A stretch of 64,000 nucleotides of DNA, from positions 118,566,657 through 118,630,656 of the forward strand of contig NC_089582.1 in the NCBI RefSeq assembly GCF_019320115.1, read 5' to 3'. The position numbers and the translations under genes are program-made. Below, in pieces: positions 28,813 to 40,714 of the stretch; position 1 is the stretch's first letter, and the number at the start of each line of letters is the position of its first letter. Source of the DNA: Miscanthus floridulus. Its lineage: Eukaryota; Streptophyta; Magnoliopsida; Poales; Poaceae. The notes beneath the pieces were generated by a model. That model saw only the letters and a list, made by a program, of their open reading frames with translations. It searched no databases and had not been told where the DNA came from.

Positions 28813-28821
28813 GCGTCGCCA
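28813..28821. repeat. MULE target-site duplication, left
   Basis: GCGTCGCCA directly precedes the 19-base TIR and is repeated exactly at 40706-40714. Confidence 0.92.
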
Positions 28822-28917
28822 CCGAATTTTTTACTATTTAGCTGTATTGCTTTGGAGATGATGGCATTGCAGTTGATGGTGTACTGCACCTAGATTCTTC
28901 TCCCAACATCTTAGTGA

Positions 28918-31455
28918 ATGATCTCAATTGGTTGTGCGGATCAGTGGGACAACTATGTGAGATCGGCTATGAAGAGCCAGCTGCAATGTTTGGACGTGGT
29001 TGTTCGTCGGGTGTTAGTTGATCCAATCCCTCATGGGTTTACCCCAGCAATGGATCATTCGGCACACATCGACCCTCCCATTCCGGAACCTTACCTGCAT
29101 GTGCAGATTGCGCCTATGGTTCCTGATGCTCAATCTGCCCCTAATGCGTTATTTGGAGATGGTTGTCATACTCATGTTTTCGTGGCAGATCCTCCTTATG
29201 AGATCCCTTTGACACAGAATCATCCGAGTAAGTGTCTTAACCACATGGTTTTTGGGAGCTTATCCCGTTTCTTACATCTATTTCTTTCATTCTTTCCTCA
29301 TTTCTGTAATGACGTTGCAGGAGACATTCCTGAGAATATCGATGTGCCCCATGTTGCTGCGCAAGTGCACTTTTCAGATGGATTTCGTGGCTCCAATAAT
29401 GTTGAAATTATGAATGATTCGGAGCATATGAGATGGCTAGGGCTCTTGATTCTGATGATGATCGTCCTGTTGGAGAGCTGACGGAGAGTGGTGTTGAGAT
29501 GATGAGGCATATCTTTCCCGACCGCCATGATCCTAGAGTTCATGAGTTTAGTGATCTTGCTCATTCTGATCTGACGTTTGCAGAAGGATGTGATGATGAG
29601 CTCCTAGAAGCTCCTGAGGCCGGTCCTAACATGGTAATTGAGGAGGGGAGGGTGTTCAATGACCTCCCTGCTTTGAAGAGGTGGTTGCAGGCTTTTGTAG
29701 TGATACGAAAGAGGCCTTACAGGGTATTGCATTCATATGTGGAGCGCCGTTACACAGTTGTGTGTGATAAGGAATGCTGCCCATGGAGGGTTTGTGCAAG
29801 GAAGCAACAGGTGACTGGAAAATAGAAGATCACAAAAGTAGTTGGGCCACACAATTGTGCTGACCATGAGCTGACACTGAGGCATCGGCAGTTAACATCT
29901 ACCCTCATTGCCAAGCGGTTGATGGGAATTTTACAGGAAGAACCCAACATGAAGGTGAGAATAATTATCAGAACCGTTGAGGCGTTGTATGGAAGATATG
30001 TGATAACTTATGGTAAAGCATGGAAGGCTAAGCATCGAGTGTGGAAGATGATATATGGGGACTAGGAGGATGGGTATGAGCAGCTGCCAGTTCTTTTCAA
30101 TGCAATCAAAGCGGTGAATCCAGGCATGCATTATGAGTACATCCCAAAACCTAATGCATGGAAGGATGAAAGGCAGATATTTTTCTGTGCCTTCTGGTGC
30201 TTTCCTCAGTGTGTCGAGACCTTTAGGCACTGTCGTCCCGTCTTCTCCATTGATGGTATGTTCTTGATTGGCAAATACCAGGGCACACTTCTTATAGCCA
30301 TATCCTGTGACGCGAACAATAAGTTGGTTCCTTTGGTATTTGCTTTGGTTGAGAAGGAGAACAATAACAGTTGGGGATGGTTCTTGAGGCTAGTCCGGAT
30401 ACACGTGGTTGGCCCTGGCAGGAAGGTTGGCGTCATATCTGATAGGCATCAGAGCATACTTAATGCCGTGCGAGAGCAGTTAGAGGGGTATGCACCTTTG
30501 CACCATCGTTGGTGTACTCAACACCTTGCCAAGAATCTACTACGGAAGGATGGTGTCAAGAAAAAACTTTGATCTGTTCCAGGAGGCTGCTCGACAGCTT
30601 GAGGACAAGTACTTTAGGGAAAAGTTGGAGCAGGTCAGAACCGCATCAAATGCAGAAGGTAGACAATGGCTCACATGTTTGATGAGGGATTTGGAGAAAT
30701 GGACGAGAGCTCATGACGACGGTGGTTGGAGGTACGAATTTTAGTGCAGCAACATGGCAGAGTCATTCAATAAGTTGCTATTGGGGATACATGGTATGCC
30801 CGTGAATGCAATTGTTTAATTCACCTTCTATAAGCTTGTTGCCTAGTTCAATGATAGACACGCCTATGCATTGCAGTTGAGGAGTGATGGAGAGATATGG
30901 GCTCCGAAATCAAAGGCACACCTAGAGAAGGCAAGAGAAAGGGCTGGCACACATGAGGTTGCATGCTTTGACCACGCCATAGGGACTTATCAGGTCGAGC
31001 ATAGGGGCGGTACAACGTCCGATGGCGAGGTTCGAGAGTCGAGGATACATGTGGTTGTCCTCCAAGATTTCAAGTGCACTTGTGGTAAACCAAGGCAATA
31101 CCACTTTGTATGTTCGCATTTGGTGGCAGCAGCTAGGCATCGCAACTATAATATCGAGAGGAGGATACCTCACGAGTTCAGTGTCAACACGCTTGTGAAC
31201 ACATGGAGCCCTCGCTTCGTGCCTTTCTGGGACCCTAGAGAGTGGCCTCCATATGATGGGCCGAAGTACATTGCGGATCCAGCTTACCGTTGGAATAAGC
31301 GTGGATCAAGACAGAGGACGAGGCATAGGATGGTTATGAATCAGATACCCGGAAGAACTAGGCGTGGGAGAGGAACTCCATTTGTTACTGATCCCGAGCA
31401 GCACGAGTGCGGCAAGTGCGATAGACTTGGCCACAACTCACGAAGTTGCCATTAG
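28918..31455 (+). pseudogene. mudrA-like MULE transposase, disrupted
   Basis: The N-terminal part (29433-29823) is a MuDR/FAR1-type DNA-binding domain: GRVFNDLPALKRWLQAFVV, then RRYTVVCDKECCPWRV. A catalytic domain follows (30066-30570): FSIDGMFL supplies the first Asp, VISDRHQSIL the second, and SNMAESFNKLLL near 30750 the Glu. HRWCTQHLAKN lies between the second Asp and the Glu. A SWIM zinc finger (CTCGKPRQYHFVCSHLV) lies near 31077 and a C-terminal CCHC knuckle (CGKCDRLGHNSRSCH) ends at 31455. Stops interrupt it at about 29824, 30063, 30742, 30819 and 30844, and the frame shifts near the A-run at 30560. All functional motifs are still legible, so decay is moderate. A probable intron lies near 29229-29321. 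Confidence 0.85.
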
Positions 31456-31626
31456 CAGATTAGTGAGGTAGGACTATTGGTTTATAGTATTATTTTATAT
31501 TTGTCGTATTATATATTTAATTATGCATGTCTCAATTTATGCTTGTATTTGTGTCAATTACCTATACATTTATAAGTTCATGTTTCATTGTACATTGCAA
31601 TTCTAATTCATTCACTTTTTTTGTAG

Positions 31627-40019: not shown

Positions 40020-40518
40020 CTAACAAATAGGATGTAATTTAACAAACATAAATAAGAACATCACAACAAAATATCAATGAGAACCATAATTACAATACAA
40101 TCAATTTCGTTCTAAGAACCAAAAGCAGTTAACATTATACCCTAAACCTAGGGTTTCTCATTTCATCCACAACAATAAATCCATAACATAACTACATGCG
40201 GCTTGGTTTGCTAGCTTTTTTCATGCCTTGAAATGAACCTACGGTTGTATAATACATATATTGAGGGATACAATAAAACCCTAAGTGATGACGATTCTTA
40301 GGTTCAAAAATCCGACTAATATGTACCGAATCGATGCGAGAAAAACATGGAGGTGAGCGAGTATACCTTGCTCTCGAAGATCTACGGATCAAATCAAGGT
40401 TTTCAAGGTCCAATATGTCGATTCGTGAGGTAGGATAAAGTGGCGAGAAAAAAACCCGAGGAGAAATAAGAGGAAGAACGCTTGGGGAAGAAGTGCAGGC
40501 TGGGTTAAATACAGGTGG

Positions 40519-40616
40519 CTCGGCGCCAAGATCTACGGCGCCGAGCCCCTGGCAGGCCATTTGCCCGTGCCCAGGACCTCGGCGCCAGTCACCGTGGCGC
40601 CGAGCTCGGCGCCACT
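40519..40616. repeat. Subterminal GGCGCC palindrome cluster of the MULE
   Basis: CTCGGCGCC and its inverse GGCGCCGAG occur five times within about 100 bases, 90-190 bases inside the right end. The left end has no equivalent. Clustered subterminal motifs can be transposase sites or stem-forming; here this is only suggested by position. Confidence 0.6.
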
Positions 40617-40705
40617 CACTCTGGGGTTCATTTCTGGAATCGTTTCCGCCAGAGATCTATTTGAAAGAAACTTTCGAAAAAAATGTTAAATAGTAAAAAA
40701 TTCGG

Positions 40706-40714
40706 GCGTCGCCA
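40706..40714. repeat. MULE target-site duplication, right
   Basis: GCGTCGCCA directly follows the right TIR. Removing the element restores continuous sequence CACCTGGGTT-GCGTCGCCA-CACCACTCGG. Confidence 0.92.

What the first reader, a model, noticed from the sequence alone, without database searches (positions are those of the whole stretch)
28813..40714. Complete-ended MULE carrying transposase, plant mobile domain and two GRF-finger genes
Both 19-base TIRs and a perfect 9-base target duplication (GCGTCGCCA) bound one 11.9 kb unit with four gene-like modules: mudrA-like transposase, PMD, GRF 1, and a convergent GRF 2 with up to three fingers. MULEs with a PMD domain are known. The regular inclusion of two GRF genes in opposite orientation would define an element type with its own accessory proteins, perhaps acting on single-stranded intermediates or on host silencing. 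The function is inferred from position only.
Basis: partly seen in the sequence, partly recalled or inferred. Interest (0 to 1): 0.88.

Follow-up and report, generated by a model that had tools for sequence, protein, structure and literature searches.

The report
Grass MULE carrying two GRF genes
A large family of cut-and-paste jumping genes in the grass Miscanthus usually carries, besides its transposase, three extra genes, two of which make zinc-ribbon proteins of a kind that elsewhere binds single-stranded DNA; what they do for the transposon is not known and can now be tested.

Summary
One unit (28822-40705) has exact 19-bp inverted ends, a perfect 9-bp target duplication, and mudrA, PMD and GRF1 on one strand facing a convergent three-finger GRF2. 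This copy is a wreck: all four genes are broken, a 2,357-bp LTR-like insert splits GRF1, and 1.2-1.5 kb at the left end (most of a TIR that is 163-297 bp in other copies, and the transposase start) is deleted.

Of the 20 closest transposase places, 15 carry all four modules and 16 both GRF genes, these 16 in the same order and strands; 7 of 8 extended copies are TIR-bounded units of 10.7-10.9 kb with 9-bp duplications. Shared variants show too few amino-acid changes in mudrA, PMD and GRF1; GRF2 alone is not significant (p 0.13). Protein relatives of both GRFs occur in other grasses. GRF2 also sits, convergent, in a second MULE family with other ends and a transposase 33-40% identical.

So the GRF genes are standing parts of the element, not passengers. 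Their role is inferred: help at single-stranded transposition intermediates (about 0.4) or counter-silencing (about 0.3). New variant of a known kind.

The parts
28813..28821 (.). left target-site duplication GCGTCGCCA
28822..28843 (+). remnant of the left TIR (19 bp exact match to the right end; about 22 bp kept), followed at once by a deletion junction with AGCT microhomology (read by eye)
28842..31452 (+). mudrA transposase, 5'-truncated and broken (MULE domain, DBD_Tnp_Mut, sub-threshold SWIM; CCHC knuckle seen by eye)
31628..34082 (+). PMD gene (PF10536, 1.6e-52), several exons (limits by eye), 5 in-frame stops
34780..34906 (+). GRF1, first part of exon 1
34907..37263 (.). later insertion: 2,357-bp TG..CA sequence with 5-bp duplication AAGTG, no long direct repeat within it, solo-LTR-like; splits GRF1
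37264..37414 (+). GRF1, rest of exon 1 (GRF finger)
37487..37810 (+). GRF1 exon 2 (last finger Cys, second Cys cluster, polyproline, conserved tail)
38183..40019 (-). GRF2, convergent, three Cys-rich GRF-like fingers, several exons (limits by eye), broken
38341..38546 (-). three 69-nt tandem repeats coding part of the GRF2 tail
40518..40705 (-). right TIR as in the family (about 190 bp; the outer 19 bp match the left remnant exactly)
40706..40714 (.). right target-site duplication GCGTCGCCA

Best explanation
The unit is a dead copy of a large, probably recently active Mutator-like element family of Miscanthus whose complete form is about 10.8 kb with TIRs of roughly 200-300 bp, and which as a rule encodes four proteins: a MULE transposase, a plant-mobile-domain protein, a one-finger GRF protein (GRF1) and, convergent from the other end as mudrB is in MuDR, a three-finger GRF protein (GRF2). 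Shown: anatomy, recurrence, target duplications, and constraint on mudrA, PMD and GRF1 (GRF2 weaker). Inferred: the transposase cuts at the TIRs; the GRF zinc ribbons hold single-stranded stretches at the cut ends or at the gap left behind and so favour reinsertion or repair, an accessory role like that credited to MURB (about 0.4 for this step). The confidence below is for the whole identification; the molecular role alone is 0.4.
For: Recurrence: all four modules in 15 of the 20 nearest copies, 16 of 20 with both GRFs, those 16 in the same order and strands. Unit of transposition: 7 of 8 extended copies have paired TIRs and 9-bp duplications (6 perfect, 1 with one mismatch), length 10,737-10,944 bp. 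TIR with at most 1 mismatch: 727 places in the genome against 8 for the reversed control. Constraint: after correction for the C-to-T-rich spectrum, variants shared by copies have observed/expected N/S 0.47 mudrA, 0.51 PMD, 0.31 GRF1, 0.61 GRF2 (one-sided p 0.0014, 0.014, 0.026, 0.13), singletons 1.00, 0.78, 1.69, 0.95. GRF fold: best solved-structure profile hits are NEIL3 GRF fingers (E 0.064 and 0.035); Foldseek ranks NEIL3 first for GRF2 (E 9.4e-3). Cysteines: of 12 finger positions in GRF2, 11 are Cys in 12-15 of 14-15 aligned relatives and the last in 9 of 9; in GRF1 the first three finger positions are Cys in 11-12 of 12, the fourth in 7 of 12, where rows with unspliced introns misalign. 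NEIL3's GRF fingers bind single-stranded DNA (PMC9266487, passage); MURB is said to be needed for new MuDR insertions (PMC9168764, section 23).
Against: No copy was shown to transpose and no protein was tested. GRF2 constraint within the genome is not significant alone (p 0.13); GRF1+GRF2 together p 0.014; singletons against shared, Fisher: mudrA 0.0073, PMD 0.16, GRF1 0.011, GRF2 0.22. Nearer comparisons of GRF2 show little constraint (L037 0.94, L041 0.83). Variants are not independent, and uncorrected dN/dS overstates constraint. The GRF1 fold model failed (pLDDT 37) and the GRF2 model is poor (63), so structural support is thin. 4 of the 20 copies lack the GRFs in the stretch read. Rice Abermu lacking an ORFR is reported polymorphic, so a convergent extra ORF need not be required in MULEs (PMC9168764).
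Confidence: 0.72

Rival explanations
1. The GRF proteins, with PMD, are counter-silencing factors: they keep the element's TIRs transcribed against host methylation or chromatin silencing, as VANC does for VANDAL/Hiun elements.
For: MULE PMDs appear to derive from host genes of a silencing-related clade and an anti-silencing use was proposed (PMC5418596, passages); VANC's anti-silencing role is cited in PMC6446971 (passages). The copies carry a heavy C-to-T load, 74 of 107 noncoding variants, as expected of methylated DNA, so silencing pressure is likely.
Against: No similarity of GRF1/GRF2 to VANC was tested; the GRF fingers with solved relatives belong to a DNA repair enzyme.
Confidence: 0.3
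2. GRF1 and GRF2 are captured host genes (Pack-MULE style passengers) of this copy.
For: MULEs do capture genes; GRF2 alone rides in a 3,061-bp TIR-bounded unit (L042).
Against: Present in 16 of 20 copies in fixed order; 419 GRF2 and 300 GRF1 exon matches in the genome, the listed GRF1 ones on all 19 large contigs; relatives in large clusters in other grasses; GRF1 shared variants constrained, p 0.026.
Confidence: 0.04
3. GRF2 is a selfish or neutral cassette that spreads by recombination between MULE families without helping transposition.
For: A 1.66-kb GRF2 stretch, introns included, is 85% identical between this family and a second one whose transposase is 33-40% identical; GRF2 of L042 shows no constraint against the family (1.06) and L037 and L041 little (0.94, 0.83).
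Against: GRF2 of L040 and L039 against the family looks constrained (0.57, 0.52) and their introns diverge more than exons (0.170 vs 0.135; 0.136 vs 0.089), though not in L042 (0.116 vs 0.130); fingers conserved to Urochloa at 47% identity.
Confidence: 0.2

Closest known systems
MuDR of maize (mudrA + convergent mudrB)
   Same: MULE transposase, long TIRs, 9-bp duplications, second gene convergent from the other end
   Different: MURB has no known motif (recalled) and was not compared here; this family has PMD and GRF1 besides, and its convergent gene is a GRF protein
PMD-bearing MULEs (MULE-Monocots, MDR, MUDRAVI2, MUDR clades of PMC6446971; grass MULE-PMD fusions of PMC5418596; rice Os07g0513300, P0005; Setaria K4A1T2, P0008)
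   Same: mudrA then PMD; P0008 is 65% and 59% identical to the window's mudrA and PMD
   Different: GRF genes are not mentioned: 'GRF' occurs 0 times in the text of PMC6446971 and 0 times in PMC5418596 (listing)
Abermu (barley and other grasses, PMC9168764)
   Same: Over 8 kb, transposase ORF1, extra ORF2 on the same strand, ORFR on the opposite strand (passages)
   Different: Functions of ORF2 and ORFR are called unclear; 'GRF', 'PMD' and 'mobile domain' occur 0 times. Element sequences are not held, so homology is untested
VANDAL/Hiun (vanA, vanB, vanC)
   Same: MULE with extra proteins, one of them anti-silencing
   Different: no GRF protein known to me there (recalled); not compared by sequence
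GRF zinc fingers of NEIL3, APE2
   Same: Cys pattern with G/A-R-x-F/Y-x-x-C and CxFFQWxD; NEIL3 holds the nearest solved structures
   Different: those are host repair enzymes; GRF1/GRF2 and P0001-P0003 show no enzyme domain in Pfam

Membership tests
Mutator-like elements (MULE) | DDE transposase with MULE domain | tested here: met
   PF10551 1.7e-17 in the window, also PF03108; catalytic residues not tested one by one
Mutator-like elements (MULE) | 9-bp (8-11) target duplication | tested here: met
   Perfect in the window and in 6 of 8 extended copies, one more with 1 mismatch, one without a left TIR
Mutator-like elements (MULE) | Terminal inverted repeats | tested here: met
   163-297 bp in 7 complete copies; truncated on the left in the window
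PMD-bearing MULE | PF10536 domain protein beside the transposase | tested here: met
   1.6e-52; 18 of 20 copies
GRF zinc ribbon (PF06839), GRF1 | curated cut-off of 25.9 bits | tested here: met
   25.9 bits in the window piece, just at the cut-off
GRF zinc ribbon (PF06839), GRF2 | curated cut-off of 25.9 bits | tested here: inconclusive
   23.2 in the broken window copy, none in P0001, 34.5 and 31 in Urochloa relatives P0002 and P0003; only finger 1 is seen by Pfam
GRF zinc ribbon | zinc-ribbon fold | tested here: inconclusive
   GRF2 model pLDDT 63, best hit NEIL3 E 9.4e-3; GRF1 model pLDDT 37
MuDR subfamily | mudrB | not tested
   MURB sequence not at hand
Abermu | ORF2 and ORFR sequence | not testable with these tools
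   element sequences not held

The most novel reading that the evidence does not exclude
GRF2 is a portable, working accessory gene exchanged between MULE families of grasses (here two families with different TIRs and transposases, plus a GRF2-only unit), and GRF1, GRF2 and PMD together form an accessory set that handles single-stranded transposition intermediates or host silencing: an answer, in other grasses, to the open question of what MuDR's second gene does.
Probability: 0.35. Interest if true: 0.82.

Novelty: new variant of a known kind. Interest (0 to 1): 0.62.

Why it matters
What MULEs need beside the transposase is unsettled since mudrB. Here are two proteins with zinc-ribbon fingers of a type that binds single-stranded DNA in a repair enzyme, kept in fixed places in a high-copy family, and one of them is shared with another MULE family. 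That makes the accessory question testable with ordinary assays, and it may explain part of the 'GRF-type domain-containing' gene models in grass annotations as transposon genes.

Tried and rejected
Viral-contig scans with P0008, P0002, A1, A2 and a genome-contig scan with P0008 found no relative; a plasmid tblastn with the first 93 residues of GRF2 found none. Metagenome contigs were capped at 0 and not tried. Plain NG86 dN/dS (mudrA 0.47, PMD 0.39, GRF1 0.575, GRF2 0.57) was set aside, because noncoding divergence (medians 0.014-0.022) is below median dS (0.032-0.062) and 74 of 107 noncoding variants are C-to-T/G-to-A; the corrected counts replace it. Chance for TIR/TSD rejected. Host-gene passenger rejected. 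Left out of the variant counts: codons with two or more changes, columns with fewer than 8 copies, gene pieces matched over less than 70%, and the window copy. L040 mudrA against the family was too diverged to read (0.91). Concordance of pairwise distances between modules: mudrA-PMD rho 0.77 and PMD-GRF1 0.75 (0 of 500 permutations as high), mudrA-GRF1 0.54 (5 of 500), pairs with GRF2 0.39-0.47 (14-30 of 500). An earlier count gave 91% for the L040 TIRs without a computation; one search gives 93.5% over 231 columns.

Full report
1. The unit. The 9-bp duplication GCGTCGCCA and an exact 19-bp inverted repeat bound 28822-40705 (11,884 bp). No other pair in the 64-kb window has an exact TIR of 8 bp or more with an exact 9-bp duplication, and 20 simulated windows gave one such 8-bp case and none at 10 bp. 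Inside, on the + strand, lie mudrA, PMD and GRF1; on the - strand, convergent, GRF2. tblastn finds no relative of these genes and no other TIR (up to 4 mismatches) elsewhere in the window (profile hits outside or off-frame at E 0.035 and 0.051 taken as chance).

2. State of this copy. All four genes carry stops, mudrA and GRF2 frameshifts as well (read by eye). A 2,357-bp TG..CA sequence with a 5-bp duplication sits in GRF1. Against seven complete copies, the left end is deleted from about the 22nd TIR base to within the first mudrA exon, 1,194-1,452 bp, with AGCT shared at the junction (by eye). The short left TIR is thus peculiar to this copy.

3. Where it lies. The window is C3:118566657-118630656 of a 2,684,536,002-base assembly. 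I take it to be Miscanthus floridulus: contig C8 has the length given for a M. floridulus record (P0004), and the published assembly has 2.68 Gb and 19 pseudochromosomes (PMC8238680, passages; 'Mutator' and 'MULE' occur 0 times in its text). P0001 and P0004 are then the same species, not independent relatives.

4. Recurrence. A 462-aa transposase piece has 92 scored places at 89-94% identity. I read 10 kb around the 20 closest. mudrA is in 20 of 20, PMD in 18, GRF1 in 16, GRF2 in 16, all four in 15; the 16 with both GRFs share order and strands. Exceptions: L011 has a TIR-like end soon after mudrA; L012 shows only the first PMD piece; L021 and L027 have no GRF in the stretch read, though listed GRF1 places lie about 9 and 21 kb downstream on the same strand; L026 lacks PMD and L015 keeps one PMD piece. 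The 20 are the nearest relatives, not a random sample. Over all 92, 49 have a listed GRF1 0.5-25 kb downstream, 49 of 49 same strand, against 2 upstream; 6 have a listed GRF2 downstream, all on the opposite strand, 0 upstream; of 149 typed GRF1 places 11 have a typed GRF2 within 6 kb downstream, all opposite, 0 upstream. The lists are cut short (149 of 300 GRF1 and 150 of 419 GRF2 matches typed), so these are lower bounds. For 8 copies I also fetched the left end: 7 are complete units of 10,737-10,944 bp with 9-bp duplications, 6 perfect and 1 with a mismatch; in L009 no left TIR was found. TIRs of the 7 are 163-297 bp at 77-97% identity. The 19-bp end occurs 727 times at up to one mismatch, reversed control 8.

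5. The converse. Six GRF2 places drawn at random from 77 typed ones: two have the whole order (L037, L038), one mudrA-GRF1-GRF2 (L041), one PMD-GRF2 (L039), one is a 3,061-bp unit with the family's TIR (4 mismatches) and a perfect 9-bp duplication holding GRF2 alone (L042), and one (L040) lies in another MULE: 6,628 bp, TIRs of about 231 bp at 93.5% beginning ACTAACACTTTTG, duplication TTTTTTAAA, transposase 33-40% identical. In L040 a 1.66-kb GRF2 stretch, introns included, is 85% identical to ours. The junction is no one-off: 25 further loci match across it in one piece (my count), and 11 of 147 listed transposase places of that family, L040 among them, have GRF2 or the junction within 6 kb downstream, 0 upstream (truncated lists again). 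So 6 of 6 GRF2 places read are MULE-linked.

6. Constraint. Uncorrected dN/dS is below 1 for all four modules but misleading, since C-to-T changes dominate (74 of 107 noncoding variants). With the expected N/S computed from that spectrum (20 copies, window left out), singletons are near neutrality (1.00, 0.78, 1.69, 0.95 for mudrA, PMD, GRF1, GRF2) and variants shared by two or more copies lie below it (0.47, 0.51, 0.31, 0.61; one-sided p 0.0014, 0.014, 0.026, 0.13; GRF1 and GRF2 together 0.48, p 0.014). Singletons against shared, Fisher: 0.0073, 0.16, 0.011, 0.22, together 0.017. My reading: singletons are mostly decay after insertion; shared variants passed through active ancestors. For GRF2, other comparisons with the family are mixed: L040 0.57 and L039 0.52, introns more diverged than exons; L037 0.94, L041 0.83, and L042, the GRF2-only unit, 1.06.

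7. Other grasses. The protein search with a GRF1+GRF2 query gave 67 hits, 11 GRF1-like and 56 GRF2-like by blastp. Named sources: GRF1 Urochloa humidicola and Panicum virgatum; GRF2 those and Setaria, Digitaria, Paspalum, Eragrostis. In Urochloa clusters stand for up to 46 (GRF1) and 40 (GRF2) member sequences, as expected of repeats. No rice, maize or sorghum name is among the 67, but many are unnamed and the search works by shared words. mudrA followed by PMD in one gene model occurs in rice (4 hits) and Setaria (1); none shows a GRF domain (four scanned, P0007 by its precomputed domains only). Genomic context in those species could not be read.

8. Fold and likely work. Solved-structure profile hits (E 0.064 GRF2, 0.035 GRF1) and Foldseek for GRF2 (E 9.4e-3) point to NEIL3 GRF fingers, all weak. 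Of the twelve finger cysteines of GRF2, 11 are kept in 12-15 of 14-15 aligned relatives that have the site, the twelfth in 9 of 9; these rows were my selection and include the window. [quoted passage not shown] From this I infer an accessory role at single-stranded intermediates; counter-silencing is the main rival.

9. Literature. Searches listed no paper that, by title, abstract start or term counts, reports GRF genes in MULEs; 'GRF' occurs 0 times in PMC6446971, PMC3418495 and PMC9168764. I saw passages of these and of PMC5418596, PMC8238680 and PMC9266487, and section 23 of PMC9168764; no paper was read whole. Repbase and most subscription journals are not held, so a description there is possible.

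Noticed in passing
L040 (G000:C15:84289861-84298360), 1088-7715: Second MULE family with its own 231-bp TIRs and a far transposase but the same GRF2 gene: exchange of an accessory gene between MULE families.
   Followed up: partly
L042 (G000:C1:117421296-117429795): 3,061-bp TIR-bounded unit with perfect 9-bp duplication that carries GRF2 alone.
   Followed up: partly
P0004: A predicted Miscanthus protein joins a trypsin-like domain (PF13365, precomputed) to the GRF2 tail; possibly a host gene that has taken up transposon sequence, or a gene-model error.
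   Followed up: no
window 34907-37263: Solo-LTR-like 2,357-bp insert with clustered CGGACGC/GCGTCCG repeats.
   Followed up: partly
window 5824-8460 (-) and 9427-10161 (-): Tcp11-domain gene and a histone H2A gene.
   Followed up: no
window 51913-54562 (-), 21675-22400 (+): LINE-like pieces: reverse transcriptase, endonuclease and zf-RVT.
   Followed up: no
window 5134-5635, 26291-26492, 43003-43349: Stretches of 200-500 bp that match their own reverse complement, MITE-like.
   Followed up: no
family copies, noncoding parts: C-to-T/G-to-A changes make up 74 of 107 variants, a sign of methylated, silenced copies.
   Followed up: partly
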